IMG/VR virus record: IMGVR_UViG_3300044539_000060
Coordinates: 1 to 37,375 of that record
Strand: one strand, 5' to 3'
DNA length: 37,375 nt
DNA from: a virus
Under the pieces are notes generated by a model. That model worked only from the letters and a program-made list of their open reading frames with translations, was not told the origin of the DNA and searched no databases. The number at the start of each line of letters is the position of its first letter. Positions within the stretch are counted from its first letter, which is position 1. Of this stretch, positions 1-37,375 are shown piece after piece. Made by a program: the position numbers and the translations under genes.

Positions 1-1063
1 CCAAACAGTCACCGCAGCACAAGCAGTTAGTACTATGTTATCTCAACCTTTAGGTGGCGTGAGTATGTTTCTTGAGCCGATCTATGTGAATCCAGGCGAA
101 TTTATCTCATTATCGGTTAAACATATCGGAACTGTTGGAACAAGTGGAACAATCGCAACAAGTATGCAATACATTTATTCTTGGGAATAATTTAAAACAA
201 TGGCAAAAACTAAAATAGAAGTAGACTTAGTCATCAAAGGTGGCGAAAGTGTTGAGCAGGTAGAACAAAAAACCAAGAGTTTAAAAACTCAACTAAAGGA
301 AATGAAGGCTTTATTAGCTTCAGGGACTTTAGACAATGCTCAATTTAATAAACTATCAAAAGAGGCGGGTGATTTACAAGACAAGATAGGTGACGTAAAT
401 CAACAAGTCAAAAACTTAGCGAGTGACTCTAAAAGTTTAGACGGTATGATATCAATCACGCAAGGTATTGTAGGGGGTTTCGCTGCGGTTGAGGGTATAA
501 CTGCAATGGTCGGTGAGGGGAATGAGGACTTGCAAAAGACAATGGTCAAGCTTCAAGGTGCAATGTCGGCACTTGCAGGGATTCAGGCGGTTGCTAACAC
601 ACTTAATAAAACGAGTGCAGCCTACACTACTGCGAACACCATCGCAACCAATGTAAGCACATTTGCTCAGAAGAGATATGCAGCCGCAGTCGGAACTACA
701 ACGGGTGCAATGAGGTTGTTAAGAATAGCAGGTGCAGCGTTAGGAATTGGTTTAATAATTGGGGCGATTGCTTTACTTGTAGCCAATTTTGACAAGCTTA
801 AAAATGTAGTCGGCAAATTTATCCCAAGTTTAGACACTATTACAAAAGGGTTTAAGGCTGCTTACAATGCAGTGACTGACTTTTTAGGAATCACAAACGA
901 CCAAACGAGAGCGGCTGATAAATTAAAAGAAAGTTCTGATAAACTTTTAAAATCCCAACAAGATGAATTAGAAGTGTTAAAAGCCAGTGGAGCAACTAAA
1001 AGAGAATTATATTTAGCCGAATATGATATGATGGCAACCCGTATTGCTACTTTAGATAAGATG
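1..1063. repeat. Left copy of a 1,063-bp imperfect end repeat
   Basis: Position 1 aligns with 36313 and position 1063 with 37375 without any gap. By hand I count about 4 mismatches in the first 199 bases and about 86 in the following 864, so identity falls from about 98% to about 90% at the start codon of the tape-measure gene. Nearly all coding differences are synonymous. It covers the end of the 487-aa virion protein gene and the first 288 codons of the tape-measure gene. A physical terminal repeat would normally be identical, so this is more likely a circular genome whose overlap came from a second strain, or a true tandem duplication. Confidence 0.95.
2..190 (+). CDS. C-terminal fragment of the 487-aa putative virion protein (5' end cut by the window)
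   Basis: An open frame enters at base 2 and stops at TAA 188-190. Its 62 residues are identical to the last 62 residues of the protein at 35039-36502, ending in QYIYSWE. The DNA differs from the other copy at two silent positions. It is cut by the window edge rather than broken. In the circular reading it is the same gene as 35039-36502, seen in a second haplotype, and it leads into the tape-measure gene at 200. Confidence 0.85.
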   Translation, partial: QTVTAAQAVSTMLSQPLGGVSMFLEPIYVNPGEFISLSVKHIGTVGTSGTIATSMQYIYSWE

Positions 1064-2018: not shown

Positions 2019-2049
2019 TTGTACATAGTTTAATTATAAATATAATATA
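2019..2049 (+). promoter_or_regulatory. Candidate phage late promoter, copy 1 (upstream of the protease)
   Basis: TTGTAC at 2019-2024 and AATATAATATA at 2039-2049, with 14 nt between TGTAC and the A/T element, and the ATG exactly 4 nt downstream at 2054. The same arrangement occurs before 4785 and 30420. It reads like a -35/-10 pair (TTGTAC, N16, TATAAT) and not like the host TAnnTTTG form. Predicted transcription would begin at or just before the ATG. Promoter function is inferred. Confidence 0.6.
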
Positions 2050-4719: not shown

Positions 4720-4751
4720 AAAGGGAGGCTTAACGGCTTCCCTTTTTTTTT
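4720..4751 (+). terminator. Rho-independent terminator after the capsid/tail-tube unit
   Basis: GGGAGGC (4723-4729) pairs with GGCTTCCC (4735-4742, one G-T wobble) around a short loop, followed by nine T (4743-4751). It separates the tail-tube gene from the next late promoter, whose TGTAC element begins on the last T of this terminator. Confidence 0.9.
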
Positions 4752-4780
4752 GTACTTAAGTGACTTTTTAATATAATATA
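4750..4780 (+). promoter_or_regulatory. Candidate phage late promoter, copy 2 (upstream of the portal unit)
   Basis: TTGTAC at 4750-4755 and AATATAATATA at 4770-4780, with the same 14-nt spacer and 4-nt gap to the ATG at 4785 as the copies before 2054 and 30420. It follows the terminator directly, so it restarts transcription for the portal-to-lysis block. Confidence 0.65.
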
Positions 4781-16332: not shown

Positions 16333-16363
16333 TTTGGAAAGTTAATTATTTAGTTTATCTTTG
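16333..16363 (+). promoter_or_regulatory. Bacteroidota-type promoter (best consensus in the window)
   Basis: TTTG at 16333-16336, exactly 19 nt, then TATCTTTG at 16356-16363: a full match to TTTG-N19-TAnnTTTG. It begins right after the lipoprotein gene and drives a structured leader with a small ORF and then the replication genes. Confidence 0.85.
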
Positions 16364-19550: not shown

Positions 19551-20015
19551 ATGACAACAACTGACCAACAAATAGAACAAATAAAGTATAAGCAACTTTA
19601 TCAAACAACCTTAAGAGAAAACAAATTACTCTCCGCAAGGGTTACAAAACTAAACAGTGAAATAAGAATACTACAAAGTAAACTAAATAAAGAAGTTAAA
19701 ACGGAATTATCTGCACCACTTCAGAAAATCAAAGATGCAATCAACAATTACTTTAATGTTGACATCGATGTAAAGATAAGACAAGGCAATTATGTGAGAG
19801 GTAGAGTAGTTTATTATTTCATCTTAAGAAGTTCAACATCTATGAGTTACCGAGATATTGGGGACACGTTAAACACTCGTCATGATCACGCTAGTATTAT
19901 TCACGCCATAAATAACCATCATGATTGGATTGAGTACGATAGAACCTACAAGAGAGATTTTGAAGCTATCATGTTAGAATTAAACACACAAAATGCCACC
20001 ACAAATAACGATTAA
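19551..20015 (+). CDS. DnaA-domain-IV-like DNA-binding protein with coiled coil
   Basis: A 154-aa protein. Residues about 5-55 form a coiled coil (LYQTTLRENKLLSARVTKLN). Residues about 80-125 resemble the DnaA C-terminal DNA-binding domain: VVYYFILRSSTSMSYRDIGD, then TRHDHASIIHAINN, close to the DnaA signature around RDHTTVLHA. There is no AAA+ domain. It might bind DnaA-box-like sites in the phage origin or compete with host DnaA. The family resemblance is visible; the role is inferred. Confidence 0.72.
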   Translation: MTTTDQQIEQIKYKQLYQTTLRENKLLSARVTKLNSEIRILQSKLNKEVKTELSAPLQKIKDAINNYFNVDIDVKIRQGNYVRGRVVYYFILRSSTSMSYRDIGDTLNTRHDHASIIHAINNHHDWIEYDRTYKRDFEAIMLELNTQNATTNND

Positions 20016-20643: not shown

Positions 20644-20675
20644 TTTGGTACTTTCAAGATAAAATTGTAATATTG
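20644..20675 (+). promoter_or_regulatory. Candidate promoter for the middle gene block
   Basis: TTTG (20644-20647), 20 nt, then TAATATTG (20668-20675): one mismatch to TAnnTTTG and the same box as the early promoter at 11402. It starts 8 nt after NinG, and the next ATG is at 20684, so the leader would be only a few nt. Confidence 0.6.
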
Positions 20676-20683
20676 TAAACATT

Positions 20684-20905
20684 ATGAACGATTTGATATA
20701 CAACTATATCGATAAATTAGTAGAGAAAATAGCCGCTAAAGAGGGCGGATGTTCTCGAAATCGTAAGCCTGAAAAGGTTGAGTTTTGGATTCACCGACCA
20801 AACTACACAACGGTAGTTACAGTGACCTACAAAGAGTTAGAGAAGTGTATGATGTTGGCTTGTTATCCTGAACATTTAATTAAATACATTGAGCGAGAAG
20901 TTTAA
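20684..20905 (+). CDS. Small unknown protein (73 aa)
   Basis: First gene behind the promoter, overlapping the sigma-like gene by 17 nt. MNDLIYNYIDKLVEKIAAKE is helical; then GGCSRNRKPEKVEFWIHRP and VVTVTYKELEKCMMLACYPE. A conserved-looking Cys pair is present. Function unknown. Confidence 0.65.
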   Translation: MNDLIYNYIDKLVEKIAAKEGGCSRNRKPEKVEFWIHRPNYTTVVTVTYKELEKCMMLACYPEHLIKYIEREV

Positions 20906-21488
20906 CATATTGCTTTGTGAGTTTAATGACTCAAAAATCTTTAACGATTATTGTAAGAGATACGGACATAAAGACCATCAAGAACTAAAGTCAGAAGTAC
21001 TTTCAATCCTACTTGAATTGCCACAACACAAAAAAGAAACAATAGCTGAAAACAACTACCTTACTCCTTACGCTTTGCAGATTCTTAAGTTCCAAGTCAG
21101 CCATTGCAATTGGACTGCATTTAGAAAAAAGTTTGGTAATAGAGAAAAGTTAATAATGTTTGATGATATTAAGATGGGGGCAGGATGTGATAAGAATAAT
21201 GATATAACCGATAAATTTGTAGTATGGCGGAATTTGTTTGATATTCCTATGTATGATTTACACGATATAGAAGAAGTTGAGATAGAAGTTGAAAAAGTAG
21301 TAGCTAAAATTGAGGAGGATATGCTTAATCAAGATAACAAATACTTTTATCATTCAAGATTATTAAACGAACTTATCATCACTGGAGTAAACACAAAACA
21401 ACTGAGCCGAGATATCGGGATACCTTATACCTCAGTCCGTCACGCCATAAAAGAATATAGACAACACCTTAAAGAATGGTTAAAATAA
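20889..21488 (+). CDS. Sigma-factor-like transcription protein (199 aa)
   Basis: Only a TTG start (20889) gives the full frame; the first in-frame ATG is far inside. Residues about 10-90 resemble the sigma region-2 part of Bacteroidota phage sigma-like proteins (FNDYCKRYGHKDHQELKSEV, LSILLELP, then FRKKFGN). Residues about 155-195 form a region-4-like helix-turn-helix: LLNELIITGVNTKQLSRDIG, then IPYTSVRHAIKEYRQHL. It may redirect host RNA polymerase to the three AATATAATATA promoters. The resemblance is by eye; the target is inference. It overlaps both neighbours. Confidence 0.6.
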   Translation: MSEKFNILLCEFNDSKIFNDYCKRYGHKDHQELKSEVLSILLELPQHKKETIAENNYLTPYALQILKFQVSHCNWTAFRKKFGNREKLIMFDDIKMGAGCDKNNDITDKFVVWRNLFDIPMYDLHDIEEVEIEVEKVVAKIEEDMLNQDNKYFYHSRLLNELIITGVNTKQLSRDIGIPYTSVRHAIKEYRQHLKEWLK

Positions 21489-22495
21489 TATACATTAACG
21501 AAAAGGATTCGGGTATAGGCTACCATCGTTTGCAGATTCCGTTTGCGAATATGGATGAGGACTATAAAGACTTGGACATAAAGGGGACTAATGGTTTTAC
21601 GTTAGACTTTCATCCTCGCCAATTTGATATCGTAGTTTTAAACCGTATGTACAAACATGATGAGGACTATTTGTTAAAGGCAAAGGATAGTGGGTGTAAA
21701 ATCATACTGGATATTGACGATTGGATTCAACTTCCAAACTATCATTATCGGGATGGCGTAAAGGACTCAATAGTAGAGCAAAGAATATTAGATGCTATTG
21801 GATATGCAGATGTCATTTGGACTGCCTCAGAATACCTTAAAGAGTGTTTAAAGGACTATCATTCAAACATAGTTTACATACCTAACGGCATTGATTTTAA
21901 ACAACCACAATTTATACCACAAAGAAACAAACAAGAAAAATATACCATTGGATGGATTGGGGCAAATAACCATCATCTTGACTTAAAGAAGTTAGCCGAA
22001 CCATTTAGCAAGTTATTAAAGAATAAAAATCATAAGTTATTACTTGGTGGTTATAATGATACCTCCCCTGAGTATTATGAATTGATTGAGAGTTTTTTTA
22101 CTTCAAATGGGCAAAGACCCCCATCACAATATATTCGTGTTGAATGGATGGACATTAGGAACTATGCACTTATGTATAATTTAATGGACTGCGCCCTTGC
22201 TCCCTTGAGTAGTGACAAGTTTAGTTTATGCAAATCAAACATTAAGGTCTTAGAAGCAGGGGCGTTTTCATTACCGATTATTTGCAGTAATGTAGCACCT
22301 TACAAAGAGTTTATCGAACAAGGCTTAGTGCTTACACCTAAAGGGGATTGGGATGGAACAATGAAAGGGTTAATCAGCAACCCGATAAAAGGTATTCAGT
22401 TAGGGGCGAAGCTTCACGAATATGTCAAAGAGAATTACAACATCAAAACAATAAATAAAAAAAGATATGCAAGTATTACAAGCCTTATGGATTAG
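21476..22495 (+). CDS. GT-B glycosyltransferase, family 4-like
   Basis: A 339-aa protein of two Rossmann-like halves. First half: GIGYHRLQIPFANM and IILDIDDW. Second half: YTIGWIGANNHHLDLKKLA, LLLGGYND, YALMYNLMDCALAPLS, and SNIKVLEAGAFSLPIICSNV with the E-x-x-x-x-x-x-E-like donor-site Glu typical of GT4. It transfers a sugar from a nucleotide donor. Targets could be a phage structural protein, DNA or host surface glycan. It overlaps the sigma-like gene by 13 nt, and a second glycosyltransferase lies two genes on. Confidence 0.82.
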   Translation: MVKIIYINEKDSGIGYHRLQIPFANMDEDYKDLDIKGTNGFTLDFHPRQFDIVVLNRMYKHDEDYLLKAKDSGCKIILDIDDWIQLPNYHYRDGVKDSIVEQRILDAIGYADVIWTASEYLKECLKDYHSNIVYIPNGIDFKQPQFIPQRNKQEKYTIGWIGANNHHLDLKKLAEPFSKLLKNKNHKLLLGGYNDTSPEYYELIESFFTSNGQRPPSQYIRVEWMDIRNYALMYNLMDCALAPLSSDKFSLCKSNIKVLEAGAFSLPIICSNVAPYKEFIEQGLVLTPKGDWDGTMKGLISNPIKGIQLGAKLHEYVKENYNIKTINKKRYASITSLMD

Positions 22496-22697
22496 TGGTT
22501 TAGCACTTGGCTTCCACGAAATTATGACCTACATTATTACAAAGTTTCCCAATAGGAAACTAAAAAAACCATTTAGTTGCCCAACCTGTATGTCCTTTTG
22601 GTTTGGTTTAATCGCATCAGTTATTCTTTTTGATCCTTTGTTAATTTTCTTACCGTTTGTCTTCACTAAAGTAATTAACAAGTTTTTATGGAATTAA
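22467..22697 (+). CDS. Small membrane protein with CPxC motif (76 aa)
   Basis: Two hydrophobic segments (about 4-25 and 44-70) flank a basic loop and PFSCPTCMSFWFGL (Cys38, Cys41). Small phage and bacterial membrane proteins with this CxxC-W signature resemble DUF1360. It overlaps the glycosyltransferase by 29 nt. Function unknown; an anchor for the envelope-modifying enzymes is only positional. Confidence 0.65.
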   Translation: MQVLQALWISGLALGFHEIMTYIITKFPNRKLKKPFSCPTCMSFWFGLIASVILFDPLLIFLPFVFTKVINKFLWN

Positions 22698-22930
22698 CGA
22701 AGGCGCAATATGAGCTTATTGTAGACTCAATCGGTAGATACCGTTTAACAATGTCTGAAAGATTCATGGTCTACCATGATGAAGACCAACATAAGGCAAG
22801 AGTCTTGCGAAAAGATTTAGGAATAGATACACCATTGCCGAACTGTTCATCCTGCGACGGGTTGGCATACTCTGAGGCATTATTTGGAGAGTTAAATAAA
22901 TTAGTAATAGAATATGAAAAAATACATTAA
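22688..22930 (+). CDS. Small unknown protein (80 aa)
   Basis: Overlaps the membrane protein by 10 nt and the GT9-like gene by 17 nt. Soluble and helical, with MELTKAQYELIVDSIGRYRL, KARVLRKDLGIDTPLP and a Cys pair in NCSSCDGLAYSE. Family not recognised. Confidence 0.65.
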   Translation: MELTKAQYELIVDSIGRYRLTMSERFMVYHDEDQHKARVLRKDLGIDTPLPNCSSCDGLAYSEALFGELNKLVIEYEKIH

Positions 22931-23687
22931 GGTAGTTCATTCAGGGAATGCAGGGGATATAATTTACTCCCTTTCAAGTTTGTACCAATATAGTTTAGAG
23001 AATGACTGCAAGATAGTTTACTATATTAGAATAGGAACACCGAGTGGATTTACTGATGAGACACACCCCGTAGGCGATGTTATGTGCAATGATGCGATGT
23101 TTGACTTTATTGCACCACTACTTAAGGCGCAACCATACATACATGATGTTATCAAATTAGCCAAAGGAGAGAACATGGTTGTAGATTATGACTTGGACTT
23201 GTTTAGAAAAGAATACAAGAACTTGTCAGCAGGTAACATTCAGAATTGGATAGCAAACGCTTATCACGAATTTAGACCGAACTTAAGTAAGCAATGCCTT
23301 TTTATTCCGGAGAACATCGGCAACAATTACATCATAGTTAATAGGACTACCCGATACAATAACTTTTTTATTGATTATTCAGTATTGGAGGAGTATGAGA
23401 ATGTTTACTTTGTAGGGACTGACAAGGAGTTTAAGAGGTTTTCTATTCACAATGATAAGATACAACATTTAAAAGTTTCAAACGCCTTAGAGATGGCAAT
23501 AGCAATTAATGGTTGTAAGTTATTTATAGGCGGTCAGAGTTTAGCGTTTAGCATAGCAGAACAATTAAAAGTCAAAAGGGTATTAGAACAGTACTTATAC
23601 GCACCCAATGTAATTCCTCAGGGTGGCGAGTGGTTCACTTTTCACACCAACGAACAATTTAAAAACATTTTAGATAAAACATTATGA
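22914..23687 (+). CDS. Glycosyltransferase family 9-like protein
   Basis: A 257-aa protein. The N-terminus VVHSGNAGDIIYSLSSLYQY is the GT9/heptosyltransferase-like G-x-x-GD start. The C-terminal half has FVGTDKEFKRF, ALEMAIAINGCKLFIGGQSL, FSIAEQLKVKRVLEQ, like the nucleotide-sugar side of that fold. It is shorter than bacterial heptosyltransferases (about 330 aa), as in several phage relatives. It probably cooperates with the GT4-like enzyme and the two methyltransferases downstream. Confidence 0.68.
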   Translation: MKKYIKVVHSGNAGDIIYSLSSLYQYSLENDCKIVYYIRIGTPSGFTDETHPVGDVMCNDAMFDFIAPLLKAQPYIHDVIKLAKGENMVVDYDLDLFRKEYKNLSAGNIQNWIANAYHEFRPNLSKQCLFIPENIGNNYIIVNRTTRYNNFFIDYSVLEEYENVYFVGTDKEFKRFSIHNDKIQHLKVSNALEMAIAINGCKLFIGGQSLAFSIAEQLKVKRVLEQYLYAPNVIPQGGEWFTFHTNEQFKNILDKTL

Positions 23688-23911
23688 TTGCATTAGAACA
23701 TAAAGATAGGGCTAAAGAATTAGTTGAAAAATTCAAAAACAACACACGAGCCTTTAATGAAACAAATGGGTGGGAAGATACATTACATGATGCTAAACAA
23801 TGTGCATTGATTTGTGTAGATGAGATATTAAAAGCAAATGCAATTTGGTATGTAGACAGCATTCCTTATAAATATTACATGGAAGTTAAAAAACAAATAG
23901 AAAAATTATGA
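23684..23911 (+). CDS. Small conserved unknown protein (75 aa)
   Basis: ATGA overlaps on both sides. KDRAKELVEKF, HDAKQCALICVDEILKAN and YYMEVKKQIEKL make a helical protein of a type I know as frequent and uncharacterised in Bacteroidota phages. No catalytic motif. Confidence 0.7.
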   Translation: MIALEHKDRAKELVEKFKNNTRAFNETNGWEDTLHDAKQCALICVDEILKANAIWYVDSIPYKYYMEVKKQIEKL

Positions 23912-24558
23912 TAGACGAATACGAAAAAATAGGCAACAGTTACAAGAGCAAAGTCTTTGGCAACCCTCAAGAGATTTATACCGACAACTACTGGAGTACA
24001 CCGATAAGGTCATCCATTGACGAACAAGTGTCTAATGTTGTAGACAAGAATAGACTTGTCATTGAAAACTTAACACACATTGAACCTAAGATGAGTTTAG
24101 AGATTGCTTGTTCGCCTGGTATTTTATTAGGCGAGATGACTGATTTAGGATTTGAGTGCGTAGGTATTGAAGTTGATGAGAAATACAAAGACCAAATATC
24201 AAAATACTCAGGAGATTCAGTTCTTATGTTTGGTTTCTTCCCTGAAATAACTAAAGATTTAGAAGTAACTAAGTTTTCAAATATCATAGCATTAGATGTA
24301 TTTGAACACATAGAAGATTCAAACGGATTCCTTGAGGAGTGCAACCGATTAATGGTAACGGGTGGACATTTAATAATTCAAAGTCCTATTATCCTTGAGG
24401 ATGGGCAAATGGATGACAAGATGTTCAATGGACTTGAGCACATTTGGATTTATGGCATAGAGGATTTAAAAGAACTATTACTTAAGAATGGTTTTGAAGT
24501 CTTGAAAGTAGATAGGCACAAAGTCGGACACGAACAAATTGTAGCTAAAAAACTATAA
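23908..24558 (+). CDS. SAM-dependent methyltransferase (216 aa)
   Basis: Class I methyltransferase: motif I LEIACSPGILLGEM (the usual E-x-G-x-G is partly changed), acidic motif II CVGIEVDEKY, motif IV NIIALDVFEHIED and motif V GGHLIIQSP. A C-terminal part with EHIWIYGIEDLKELLLKNGF fits enzymes acting on small molecules or sugars. It lies between the glycosyltransferases and a second methyltransferase. Confidence 0.8.
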   Translation: MIDEYEKIGNSYKSKVFGNPQEIYTDNYWSTPIRSSIDEQVSNVVDKNRLVIENLTHIEPKMSLEIACSPGILLGEMTDLGFECVGIEVDEKYKDQISKYSGDSVLMFGFFPEITKDLEVTKFSNIIALDVFEHIEDSNGFLEECNRLMVTGGHLIIQSPIILEDGQMDDKMFNGLEHIWIYGIEDLKELLLKNGFEVLKVDRHKVGHEQIVAKKL

Positions 24559-24560
24559 TT

Positions 24561-25124
24561 ATGGCAGAAACAAGCAAATCAAGACTACGCAGAGAAGCTT
24601 CAGGCTTTTTTGACAAATATGTTCAAGGCAAAGTCATTGACATCGGAGTTGGTCGAATAGACACACACGACGGTGCAGATGCTTTAACTGATTGGTGCGA
24701 GACTTGGGACAAAGACAACGGTAACGCAGAGTTAATGGAATCAGTCCCTGACAATACCTATGACCTTGTTTATAATTCTCATTTGTTAGAACACCTTGAC
24801 CGCCCTGAACTGGCGATAATGAATTGGATGCGAATCACTAAACAAGGCGGATATTTAATCATGGCCGTACCTCATAGAGATTTGTATGAACGTAAAACCA
24901 AGATGCCGAGTAAATGGAATAAAGACCATAAATTCTTTATTCTACCTGACACCGAAGACTTGCCCGACACCCGAAGTTTGAAACACCTTATCGAAGTAGG
25001 ATGCAGGAATTTTAACTATAAAATAATCAGCATTGAAACCAATGACACCTCAACAAATAAGGATGAACCCGAAGAACACGGAAACGGTGAATACCAAATA
25101 GAGACAATTATTCAGAAATTATAA
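24561..25124 (+). CDS. SAM-dependent methyltransferase (187 aa)
   Basis: Motif I KVIDIGVGR, a D-W acidic stretch, motif IV YDLVYNSHLLEHLDRPELAI and motif V GGYLIMAVPHRDLYE mark a class I fold. It has an acidic, polar C-terminus. The N-terminus (SRLRREASGFFDKY) suits sugar-chain methyltransferases. It starts 2 nt after the first methyltransferase; the two may act on the same product as the glycosyltransferases. Confidence 0.8.
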   Translation: MAETSKSRLRREASGFFDKYVQGKVIDIGVGRIDTHDGADALTDWCETWDKDNGNAELMESVPDNTYDLVYNSHLLEHLDRPELAIMNWMRITKQGGYLIMAVPHRDLYERKTKMPSKWNKDHKFFILPDTEDLPDTRSLKHLIEVGCRNFNYKIISIETNDTSTNKDEPEEHGNGEYQIETIIQKL

Positions 25125-25145
25125 ACAAAAAACAATATATTACTT

Positions 25146-29226: not shown

Positions 29227-29304
29227 ATGTTTTTTAGTTTACATTTCTACACCCAAAGTAAACTAAGTATAGAATTAGATTACATTCAAAATGAAAATAA
29301 GTGA
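29227..29304 (+). CDS. Possible very small protein (25 aa)
   Basis: ATG 29227 directly abuts the stop of the frameshifted frame (TAAATG) and the frame stops at TGA 29302-29304, overlapping the next gene by 14 nt. The peptide MFFSLHFYTQSKLSIELDYI ends QNENK. A 9-bp inverted repeat, TTAGTTTAC/GTAAACTAA (29234-29242, 29258-29266), lies within it with no T-tract. Support is weak. Confidence 0.35.
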   Translation: MFFSLHFYTQSKLSIELDYIQNENK

Positions 29305-29926: not shown

Positions 29927-29982
29927 TATCTTTACAGTTTACACTTTAAAGGTTGCAAGTATGGATAATAGCATTATCTTTG
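29927..29982 (+). promoter_or_regulatory. Bacteroidota-type promoter of the accessory gene, with upstream box
   Basis: TTG (29953-29955), 19 nt, then TATCTTTG (29975-29982). Upstream are TATCTTTA (29927-29934) and TTTACACTTT (29938-29947), the same order as in the region before 12936. It lies within a block otherwise driven by the late-type promoters. Confidence 0.75.
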
Positions 29983-30006
29983 TACTATACAATTAGATAA
30001 AATATT

Positions 30007-30321
30007 ATGACAACAACAGAAGCAATGCAAATGACACATCAAGAAGTAATGGCATTAAGCAAATTAGAAAAGGAAAATTATGCTGATTTAAGAAATTTAG
30101 ACTTTCACAACAAAGTTCAAATTGCAATTGATAATGGATTTACTCATATTCAGATTGGATATGCTGGATGCATTAAAGTAAGGAAAAACAAGAATGGCAT
30201 TTTCTATTCAATTAGAAATGGCAAAGGTACAGGTGTAGATTGCAATCAATATAAAGACTTAAGAGATTGCACAAAATCTTTGCAAGGTAGTGGATGGGGT
30301 AATGACATAACTTGGAGTTAA
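30007..30321 (+). CDS. Accessory (moron-like) gene product, unknown (104 aa)
   Basis: A self-contained unit in the structural block: its own host-type promoter upstream and a strong terminator 32 nt downstream, then a fresh late promoter. The protein is soluble: a helical N-terminus (MTTTEAMQMTHQEVMALSKL, then EKENYADLRNL), IAIDNGFTHIQIGYAGCIKV and RNGKGTGVDCNQYKDLRDCT with three Cys. No domain recognised. Independent expression while the rest is silent suggests host modification, superinfection immunity or anti-defence, without direct evidence. Confidence 0.7.
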   Translation: MTTTEAMQMTHQEVMALSKLEKENYADLRNLDFHNKVQIAIDNGFTHIQIGYAGCIKVRKNKNGIFYSIRNGKGTGVDCNQYKDLRDCTKSLQGSGWGNDITWS

Positions 30322-30352: not shown

Positions 30353-30380
30353 GGTAGGCAGAAATGTCTACCTTTTTTTT
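30353..30380 (+). terminator. Strong rho-independent terminator of the accessory gene
   Basis: GGTAGGCA (30353-30360) pairs with TGTCTACC (30365-30372, one G-T wobble) closed by a GAAA tetraloop, followed by eight T (30373-30380). It isolates the accessory gene from the tail genes. Confidence 0.92.
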
Positions 30381-30384
30381 GTAT

Positions 30385-30415
30385 GTGTATTTTTAACCTT
30401 AAATAATATAATATA
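30385..30415 (+). promoter_or_regulatory. Candidate phage late promoter, copy 3 (tail genes)
   Basis: GTGTAT at 30385-30390 and AATATAATATA at 30405-30415, with a 14-nt spacer after TGTAT and a 4-nt gap to the ATG at 30420. The -35-like part has T for C in the last position compared with copies 1 and 2. It follows the accessory gene's terminator. Confidence 0.6.
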
Positions 30416-35038: not shown

Positions 35039-36502
35039 ATGGCAAACAAAATACAAGGCGGAACAAACAACGCAGGAATCGTAAATGTAGATGCAAACTA
35101 CCAACTAAAGGTAAGCCCTGAAGTGGACATCTTAAACAATCCCGAATTTATTGGGGCGGTTAAAATTGTTTCAGAGAATGACGGTGGAACTAAAACAGGT
35201 ACTCCTTACTTATTAAGTCCTGAGACTGATGACGATTATCGTTTAAGGGTTGCAATGGATACTCAGTTAGATGACGAAACATTCAACTACACTGCACAAA
35301 ATACAGGTAAGCATAATAACCAATCTACAACCATGACTTACACTTATGGAACGGGTGGTTTGTTAACAAATGGTTCTTCAATTACTACTACTACTACTGG
35401 CTTATCATTGTCTACTTATGCTATGTTTGCCTTTCCGTCTAATGGTGCGGTATTGTACAATCAAGCTGATTTATCTTTCTCTAATCAACCCGTTGCAAAT
35501 ACTATTGTAGACTTTGGTTTATTCTTAAGGCCGACATCAAATCCATACGCTCCGACGGATGGGGCTTACTTTAGATTAAACGCTTCAGGTTTATTTGGGG
35601 TTGTCAATCATAACGGTACTGAAAATACTACATCTGCATTTGCATTTACTTATAACAATACTCAAGTTTATAAATTCATTGTAGCAACTTCTAATAATAG
35701 GGTTAATTTTTGGATAGACGATGTTCTTTACGGTTCTATTTCCACTCCGATATCTCAAGGGCAACCTTTCATGGCATCTGCTTTACCTTTCTCATTAAGA
35801 CACGTTATAACGGGAGGCGCAGCAGGTGGAGTGTTCCAAACTACTTTAAGGGGTTATGGAGTTTCAGTTTGTGGATTGAATCAACCAAGAACATTAGGTG
35901 AAACGGGTAACGCAATGTATGGTGCTTATCAAGGGTTAAGCGGTGGAACGATGGGAAGTTTATCAACTTATGTAAACTCAACGAACCCGACTGCGGCTGT
36001 CCCTGCTAACGCATCTTTAACGGCTAACTTACCAAGTGGATTAGGTGGTATGGCATTTGAAACATTTACATTAGCAGTTAACACTGATGGTATTTTAATG
36101 TCTTATCAAGTTCCTGCGGGTACGGTTTCGGTTATGGGGAAACGATTGAAAATATTAGGTGTTAAATTATCTTCATTTGTTCAGACTGTTTTAGTGGGTG
36201 GGCCAATGGTTAGAACATTCGCTTTGAACTTTGGGCATACGGTTGTATCAATAGCAGCAGCAGAGTCAGCGATTGCAAAAGCAAGGAGAGTAGTTTTACT
36301 TCCCGAACTTAGCCAAACAGTCACCGCAGCACAAGCAGTTAGTACTATGTTATCTCAACCTTTAGGTGGCGTGAGTATGTTTCTTGAGCCGATCTATGTG
36401 AATCCAGGCGAATTTATCTCACTATCGGTTAAACACATCGGAACTGTTGGAACAAGTGGAACAATCGCAACAAGTATGCAATACATTTATTCTTGGGAAT
36501 AA
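35039..36502 (+). CDS. Putative virion protein with lectin-like domain (487 aa)
   Basis: It starts 6 nt after the tail-tip gene. N-terminal 60 residues are virion-like (QGGTNNAGIVNVDANYQLKV). Residues about 90-285 are Ser/Thr/Gly-rich with VDFGLFLRPTSNPYAPTDGA, YKFIVATSNNRVNFWIDDVL and LPFSLRHVITGGAAGG, like a concanavalin-type jelly-roll fold. The last 180 residues form a second beta domain. Possibly a tail or surface glycan-binding component. In the circular reading it leads into the tape-measure gene. Residues 426-487 recur at the window start. Confidence 0.6.
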   Translation: MANKIQGGTNNAGIVNVDANYQLKVSPEVDILNNPEFIGAVKIVSENDGGTKTGTPYLLSPETDDDYRLRVAMDTQLDDETFNYTAQNTGKHNNQSTTMTYTYGTGGLLTNGSSITTTTTGLSLSTYAMFAFPSNGAVLYNQADLSFSNQPVANTIVDFGLFLRPTSNPYAPTDGAYFRLNASGLFGVVNHNGTENTTSAFAFTYNNTQVYKFIVATSNNRVNFWIDDVLYGSISTPISQGQPFMASALPFSLRHVITGGAAGGVFQTTLRGYGVSVCGLNQPRTLGETGNAMYGAYQGLSGGTMGSLSTYVNSTNPTAAVPANASLTANLPSGLGGMAFETFTLAVNTDGILMSYQVPAGTVSVMGKRLKILGVKLSSFVQTVLVGGPMVRTFALNFGHTVVSIAAAESAIAKARRVVLLPELSQTVTAAQAVSTMLSQPLGGVSMFLEPIYVNPGEFISLSVKHIGTVGTSGTIATSMQYIYSWE

Positions 36503-37375
36503 TTTTAAACTATGGCAAAAACTAAAATAGAGGTCGACCTCGTCATCAAAGGTGGCGAAAGTGTTGAGCAGGTAGAACAAAAAACCAAGAGTCTAAAAAC
36601 TCAGCTAAAGGAAATGAAAGCCTTATTGGCTTCGGGTACTTTAGACAATGCGCAGTTTAATAAGTTATCAAAAGAGGCAGGGGATTTACAAGACAAGATA
36701 GGTGATGTAAACCAACAAGTCAAAAACTTAGCGTCCGATTCTAAGAAATTAGACGGCATGATATCAATCACTCAAGGTATTGTCGGTGGATTCGCTGCGG
36801 TTGAGGGTATAACTGCAATGGTCGGTGAAGGGAATGAAGACTTGCAAAAAACAATGGTCAAGCTTCAAGGGGCAATGTCGGCTCTTGCAGGTATTCAGGC
36901 AGTCGCTAACACACTTAATAAAACGAGTGCAGCGTATACTACTGCGAATACTATCGCTACCAATGTGAGTACATTTGCTCAGAAGAGATACGCAGCCGCA
37001 GTCGGAACTACAACGGGTGCAATGAGGTTGTTAAGAATTGCAGGTGCAGCGTTAGGAATCGGATTAATAATTGGGGCGATTGCTTTACTCGTCACCAATT
37101 TTGACAAGTTAAAGAATGTAGTTGGGAAGTTTATCCCAAGTTTAGACACAATTACAAAAGGATTTAAAGCGGCTTACAATGCGGTCACTGACTTTTTAGG
37201 AATTACAAACGATCAAACGAGGGCAGCCGATAAATTAAAAATCAGTTCAGACAAACTTTTAAAATCTCAACAAGATGAATTAGAAGTTTTAAAAGCCAGT
37301 GGGGCGACTAAAGAAGAATTATATTTAGCCGAATACAATATGATGGTTACCCGTATTGCGACTTTAGATAAGATG
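36313..37375. repeat. Right copy of the 1,063-bp imperfect end repeat
   Basis: Aligns base for base with positions 1-1063, ending at the window edge. It contains the end of the 487-aa protein gene and the first 288 codons of the tape-measure homologue. Substitutions are concentrated in the tape-measure part and are mainly at third codon positions. Confidence 0.95.
36512..37375 (+). CDS. Tape-measure protein homologue, N-terminal part (cut by the window end)
   Basis: The first 288 residues match the protein at 200 with only six changes that I can see: S-to-K in SDSKSLDG, A-to-T in LLVANF, E-to-I in KLKESSDK, R-to-E in ATKREL, and D-to-N plus A-to-V in EYDMMATR. About 86 DNA differences, mostly silent, show selection on the protein. 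The frame is open to the last base, so it is truncated by the window, not broken. Confidence 0.88.
   Translation, partial: MAKTKIEVDLVIKGGESVEQVEQKTKSLKTQLKEMKALLASGTLDNAQFNKLSKEAGDLQDKIGDVNQQVKNLASDSKKLDGMISITQGIVGGFAAVEGITAMVGEGNEDLQKTMVKLQGAMSALAGIQAVANTLNKTSAAYTTANTIATNVSTFAQKRYAAAVGTTTGAMRLLRIAGAALGIGLIIGAIALLVTNFDKLKNVVGKFIPSLDTITKGFKAAYNAVTDFLGITNDQTRAADKLKISSDKLLKSQQDELEVLKASGATKEELYLAEYNMMVTRIATLDKM

What the first reader, a model, noticed from the sequence alone, without database searches (positions are those of the whole stretch)
20889..21488. Phage sigma-like factor as the possible driver of the late promoters
The 199-aa protein has a region-2-like N-terminus and a region-4-like HTH (IPYTSVRHAIKEYRQHL), starts at TTG and lies behind an early-type promoter. 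The genome also has a separate, non-host-like late promoter class. Together these suggest a compact early-to-late switch without a phage RNA polymerase.
Basis: inference. Interest (0 to 1): 0.75.

Follow-up and report, generated by a model that had tools for sequence, protein, structure and literature searches.

The report
Likely phage sigma factor for late genes
A small virus of Bacteroidota-type bacteria carries its own, very divergent sigma-factor-like protein, and its capsid and tail genes are preceded by a conserved promoter type unlike the host's, which suggests that the protein redirects the host's RNA polymerase to late viral genes.

Summary
The ORF (20889-21488, 199 aa, TTG start) is a real, conserved gene in at least 27 related virus contigs plus three divergent ones that start with ATG. 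Its C-terminus (about 132-199) is sigma region 4 by profile comparison (score 43, permuted maximum 21) and by fold. The N-terminus is not recognisable as region 2 by sequence, but an AlphaFold model of the whole protein draws only sigma factors as its best PDB matches, many aligned end to end. The gene follows a conserved host-type promoter (TTTG-N20-TAATATTG). The non-host-like late promoter class is real: GTAYTTA...AATATWWTATA, 4-5 nt before ATG. It occurs exactly three times in the window (2021, 4752, 30387), each before structural genes, two just after intrinsic terminators. It is conserved at orthologous genes while spacers diverge, and shifts as a class to GCAYWTT...TCATATAC in an outgroup. 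No phage RNA polymerase or second sigma was recognised. I conclude: a divergent ECF-like phage sigma (about 0.8) that most likely drives the late promoters (about 0.65). That link is inferred; no transcription data exist. It works like the phiEco32 sigma: a new member of a known kind, with an apparently undescribed protein family and promoter class.

The parts
20889..21488 (+). sigma-factor-like protein, 199 aa, TTG start: N-terminal helical domain about 5-90 (region-2-like by fold only), variable acidic linker about 91-131, region-4-like HTH about 132-199
20644..20675 (+). host-type (Bacteroidota sigma-A-like) promoter TTTG-N20-TAATATTG of the sigma-like operon, conserved in relatives
   Evidence: consensus in PMC9723704
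20684..20905 (+). 73-aa conserved gene of unknown function, first gene of the operon, overlaps the sigma-like gene by 17 nt
2021..2049 (+). late promoter GTACATAGTTTAATTATAAATATAATATA, 4 nt before ATG of 2054 (head maturation protease-like, then probable major capsid)
4752..4780 (+). late promoter GTACTTAAGTGACTTTTTAATATAATATA, 4 nt before ATG of 4785 (unknown gene, then portal)
30387..30415 (+). late promoter GTATTTTTAACCTTAAATAATATAATATA, 4 nt before ATG of 30420 (virion/tail region)
4720..4745 (+). intrinsic-terminator-like hairpin with T run abutting the late promoter at 4752
30353..30372 (+). intrinsic-terminator-like hairpin with T run just before the late promoter at 30387
25134..25142 (+). 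possible fourth, weaker late-type -10 box (AATATATTA) before 25146 and the terminase genes; upstream box degenerate; tentative
16333..16363 (+). host-type promoter TTTG-N19-TATCTTTG before the replication genes

Best explanation
The gene encodes a divergent, ECF-like (region 2 - linker - region 4, no region 3) phage sigma factor. It is made from a host-type promoter in the early/middle transcription unit. It binds the host core RNA polymerase and directs it to a phage-specific two-box promoter (about GTAYTTA at roughly -33 and AATATWWTATA at roughly -10) placed 4-5 nt before the first codon of the structural operons, which so become transcribed late on nearly leaderless mRNAs. Shown: gene, conservation, region 4, predicted sigma-like fold, promoter class and its position, terminators. 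Inferred: binding to core RNA polymerase, recognition of these boxes by this protein, timing, start sites.
For: C-terminal region 4: hhalign against 13 ECF-type sigmas 43.0, P 88.7%, E 2.6e-6 versus 100 column-permuted controls (mean 12.8, max 21.4); HMM of region 4 gives 14-20 bits for all members, shuffled max 8.9; NCBIfam SigZ C-terminal match in 11 of 12 members, best E 0.0014. Predicted fold: all 50 listed Foldseek PDB matches are sigma factors aligned over the protein or its region 4; VIA-align 1or7_B (E. coli sigma-E) Z 8.4, 134 residues, 1-199, and region-4 chains Z up to 8.8; viral matches include annotated phage ECF sigmas, best E of the list 7.8e-4. Genome: conserved order NinG - small gene - sigma-like - glycosyltransferase in distant relatives. 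Late class: exactly three PWM sites of 22.6-33.6 bits, next best 7.2, still found with a PWM built without them; footprint at orthologues with diverged spacers; no such site at a gene start in 75 kb of Bacteroidota phages in which no sigma-like gene was found. A site not used in the PWM, before a clade-2 virion-region gene, fits the boxes. No RNA polymerase or second sigma recognised.
Against: Region 2 is not detectable by sequence: PF04542 none at E 10, hhalign of residues 1-92 at noise (11.9 versus 12.1 permuted mean), HMM 0.8-7.6 bits (99th percentile of shuffles 5.5). The model is of medium confidence (pLDDT 65, pTM 0.39) and full-length PDB Foldseek E-values are weak (best 0.063). No experiment links protein and promoter. 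Two other DNA-binding candidates exist (19551 DnaA_C-like; 15563). Two of the three control phages were only partly covered.
Confidence: 0.65

Rival explanations
1. It is a late transcriptional activator (working like RinA/ArpU/Ltr of Gram-positive phages): its region-4-like HTH binds the upstream GTAYTTA box and recruits the host sigma-A holoenzyme; it does not replace sigma.
For: Only the HTH is certain by sequence. [quoted passage not shown]
Against: The N-terminal model aligns with region 2 and full-length sigma factors dominate the matches. The -10 region of the late promoters is also conserved and lacks the sigma-A TTTG, which an activator alone does not explain. The known Ltr proteins are about 130 aa (PMC13123087).
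Confidence: 0.2
2. The late motif is served by a host sigma or by another phage regulator (e.g. the DnaA_C-like protein 19551 or 15563), and the sigma-like protein has another target, such as middle genes or host genes.
For: Nothing ties this protein physically to the motif; other DNA-binding candidates are conserved in the same genomes.
Against: The motif is unlike the sigma-A (TAnnTTTG), SM5 (TAnnTTGY) and ECF CGT boxes described for F. psychrophilum (PMC9723704); the promoter class shifts with phage lineage, which favours a phage-encoded specificity factor.
Confidence: 0.12
3. The conserved AATATWWTATA-N4-ATG is a translation-initiation (Kozak-like, A-rich) signal of highly expressed genes rather than a promoter box.
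For: Flavobacterium translation is favoured by A at -3, -6, -12, -13 (PMC6847099), and the box is at a constant distance from ATG.
Against: It comes with a second box about 18 nt upstream at fixed spacing; terminators end immediately upstream at two of three sites; most gene starts of the window lack it.
Confidence: 0.03

Closest known systems
Phage phiEco32 sigma factor (and its 7-11 homologue) with phage-specific middle/late promoters
   Same: phage sigma distantly related to the sigma family; host promoters for early genes; structural genes behind phage-specific promoters; phiEco32 consensus TAATGTATA is a similar AT-rich -10-type element (PMC4331800)
   Different: here a small all-plus-strand genome of Bacteroidota-phage type, an additional conserved upstream box GTAYTTA, promoters 4-5 nt from ATG, protein not alignable to known families beyond region 4, no recognised RNA polymerase inhibitor
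ECF (group 4) sigma factors, e.g. E. coli RpoE, and RNA polymerase sigma factors annotated in crAss-like phages
   Same: size, region 2 - linker - region 4 layout in the model; region 4 similar by profile
   Different: region 2 not recognisable by sequence; hypervariable linker (174-199 aa in all)
RinA/ArpU/Ltr late activators of Gram-positive phages
   Same: position near the end of the early module, likely role in the late switch
   Different: larger, sigma-like fold over the whole length, promoter class with its own -10-type box
phrog_11138 (unknown function)
   Same: weak C-terminal profile match, best E 0.0088, in 9 of 12 members
   Different: not significant; no function known

Membership tests
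sigma-70 family, ECF-like | sigma region 4 (HTH that binds the -35 element) | tested here: met
   hhalign 43 versus permuted max 21; 14-20 bits versus shuffled max 8.9; VIA-align Z 8.3-8.8 to isolated region 4 chains
sigma-70 family, ECF-like | sigma region 2 (core binding, -10 recognition) | tested here: inconclusive
   no PF04542 match at E 10; hhalign at noise; HMM 0.8-7.6 bits, only the three divergent members above the 99th percentile of shuffles; full-length fold alignments include residues 1-90
sigma-70 family, ECF-like | two-domain layout with flexible linker, no region 3 | tested here: inconclusive
   AlphaFold model with low-confidence 72-131 and two helical domains, pLDDT 65; only sigma factors among the listed PDB matches, but E 0.06 or worse
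sigma-70 family, ECF-like | binds core RNA polymerase and starts transcription at a cognate promoter | not testable with these tools
   needs biochemistry; a candidate cognate promoter class is described
RinA/ArpU/Ltr late activators | sequence similarity to those families | tested here: inconclusive
   no Pfam or PHROGs match of that kind, but no direct profile comparison was made
T7-like phage RNA polymerase strategy | phage-encoded RNA polymerase | tested here: not met
   none among the window proteins scanned with Pfam/PHROGs; most genes scanned, a few small ORFs not

The most novel reading that the evidence does not exclude
A previously undescribed family of minimal phage sigma factors in Bacteroidota viruses co-evolves with its promoter: whole late-promoter classes (GTAYTTA/AATATWWTATA versus GCAYWTT/TCATATAC) have switched together between sister lineages, giving ready-made orthogonal sigma-promoter pairs that make nearly leaderless late mRNAs.
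Probability: 0.35. Interest if true: 0.65.

Novelty: new member of a known kind. Interest (0 to 1): 0.52.

Why it matters
Bacteroidota phages are abundant, yet I found no paper in the held library on an early-to-late switch in Flavobacterium-type phages. A paired sigma-like protein and promoter class makes that switch directly testable. Orthogonal sigma-promoter pairs would also be useful genetic tools in Bacteroidota, whose expression signals differ from those of other bacteria. The lineage-wise shift of the promoters offers a natural experiment on how a sigma factor and its promoters change together.

Tried and rejected
Single-sequence AlphaFold: pLDDT 41, not used. tblastn of the protein and of two relatives against 50,697 phage records: nothing meaningful; one weak hit proved to be an HTH regulator next to a recombinase. 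Two scans of 84,980 genomes: no relative. PDB by sequence: only chance matches. Flavobacterium, Tenacibaculum and Riemerella-type phages with related replication genes: no homologue in the stretches read, and no late motif at a gene start. The idea that each genome has its own -10 variant was dropped: two variants occur within one genome (G008, G013). E. coli-type sigma-70 promoter scan: no clear excess over shuffles. A sigma-like gene in the outgroup could not be sought: its contigs do not cover that region.

Full report
What is there. The window is a 37,375-base IMG/VR virus record with 35.8% G+C and essentially all genes on the + strand. Its ends repeat each other (1-1063 and 36313-37375, 91.5% identical), so it is close to a complete, circularly mapped genome of about 36.3 kb. 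Replication genes (11.5-20.6 kb) are followed by the sigma-like gene, a glycosyltransferase/methyltransferase cluster, terminase, head, tail and lysis genes. The host type is Bacteroidota: the related replication genes lie in Flavobacterium, Tenacibaculum and Riemerella-type phages and the early-side promoters carry TAnnTTTG-type boxes (consensus from PMC9723704).

The protein. The ORF at 20889-21488 is real. Close relatives at 66-92% identity occur in about 27 IMG/VR contigs. Walking along the neighbouring glycosyltransferase gave three divergent relatives, about 55% identical overall, which begin with ATG at the matching place. Substitutions in both domains are overwhelmingly synonymous, while the linker (91-130) varies freely in sequence and length. 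No relative was found in 84,980 prokaryote genomes or in 50,697 phage records; the tools warn that very near records may be left out.

Is it a sigma factor? Region 4: yes. Profile comparison with an ECF-type panel (E. coli RpoE and FecI, six crAss-like phage sigmas, one Bacteroides phage protein, four plasmid-borne sigmas) scores 43 against a permuted maximum of 21, and all members score 14-20 bits with a region-4 HMM. Region 2: not by sequence. By predicted fold, the alignment-based model has helices at 3-82 and 134-198 with a low-confidence stretch at 72-131, and all 50 PDB matches listed by Foldseek are sigma factors, many aligned over the whole length. VIA-align gives Z 8.4 to E. coli sigma-E over 134 residues, and annotated phage ECF sigmas appear among the viral matches. 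The confidence values are moderate, so I put the sigma identity at about 0.8.

Its expression. The sigma-like gene is second in a two-gene unit behind TTTG-N20-TAATATTG (20644-20675), conserved in relatives and one base from the sigma-A -7 box. A similar element lies before the first early genes at about 11.4 kb, and TTTG-N19-TATCTTTG lies at 16333.

The late promoters. GTAY-N16-TATAATATA occurs three times in the window with no mismatch, always 4 nt before ATG, and never on the other strand; 0.25 matches are expected, and no shuffle of 100 reached three. A 20-site weight matrix scores the three at 33.6, 30.5 and 22.6 bits, with the next place at 7.2; with the window's own sites left out of the matrix they still stand well clear of the rest (32.4, 29.8, 16.4 against 8.3). 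The genes behind them begin the maturation-protease/capsid unit (2054), the unit with the portal (4785) and the virion/tail unit (30420). Strong terminator-like hairpins end just before two of them (4720-4745 and 30353-30372), so a transcript of the gene must begin within about 34-45 nt of the start codon, unless the terminators are read through. If the AATATWWTATA box acts as a -10 element, the start is at or next to the first codon; this is an inference.

Conservation of the promoters. At orthologues the two boxes persist while the spacer changes. Among relatives found through the capsid gene, 34 of 43 regions upstream of the 4785 orthologue fit the two-box pattern and two more differ by one base. 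The other seven belong to an outgroup with a roughly 66%-identical capsid protein; six of these share GCACTTTT...TCATATAC, and four members show GCATATT...TCATATAC upstream of the 2054 orthologue. The third site of one such genome ends in TCATATAG. Thus the class changes as a class between lineages, as expected if a phage-encoded specificity factor reads it. Three other Bacteroidota phages without a detected sigma-like gene show no such site at a gene start.

How it most likely works. Host polymerase with sigma-A transcribes the early and middle units, including the sigma-like gene. The protein then joins core polymerase and reads GTAYTTA with region 4 and AATATWWTATA with its N-terminal domain, turning on the structural operons. 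The recognition helix (IPYTSVRHA) is identical in both fully sequenced sigma-bearing clades, whose upstream box is also the same, which fits. Everything from the binding to core polymerase onwards is inferred. The main rival is an activator that leaves host sigma in place.

Relation to known systems. It works like the sigma of phiEco32 and 7-11 (PMC4331800): host promoters early, phage sigma for middle and late promoters with a short AT-rich element. As family membership, region 4 is met, region 2 is inconclusive, and core binding is untestable here. Jumbo phages of Bacteroidota also carry sigma factors (PMC7824862). So the kind is known; the protein family (no significant Pfam, NCBIfam or PHROGs match) and the promoter class appear undescribed in the sources I could search.

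Noticed in passing
window 1-1063 and 36313-37375: The two ends overlap at 91.5% identity: the record is a near-complete genome of about 36.3 kb whose ends come from slightly different strains, although classed as linear.
   Followed up: partly
window 21476-25124: A conserved cluster of glycosyltransferase, membrane and methyltransferase genes sits between the sigma-like gene and the terminase, as if for surface or DNA modification.
   Followed up: no
window 29234-29266: Inverted repeat TTAGTTTAC...GTAAACTAA upstream of gene 29291, conserved in several relatives: a possible operator or processing site.
   Followed up: no
window 29953-30321: Small gene with its own host-type promoter (TTG-N19-TATCTTTG) inserted among late genes; found in only one relative (L038 genome).
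   Followed up: no
window 19551-20015: Protein with a DnaA C-terminal (DNA-binding) domain, conserved near NinG in sigma-bearing relatives; another candidate regulator or replication initiator.
   Followed up: no
L033 (same virus as L164/L165): A homing-type HNH gene and a split cytosine methyltransferase lie between the DnaA_C-like gene and NinG; the large terminase is replaced by a very different version in some relatives.
   Followed up: no
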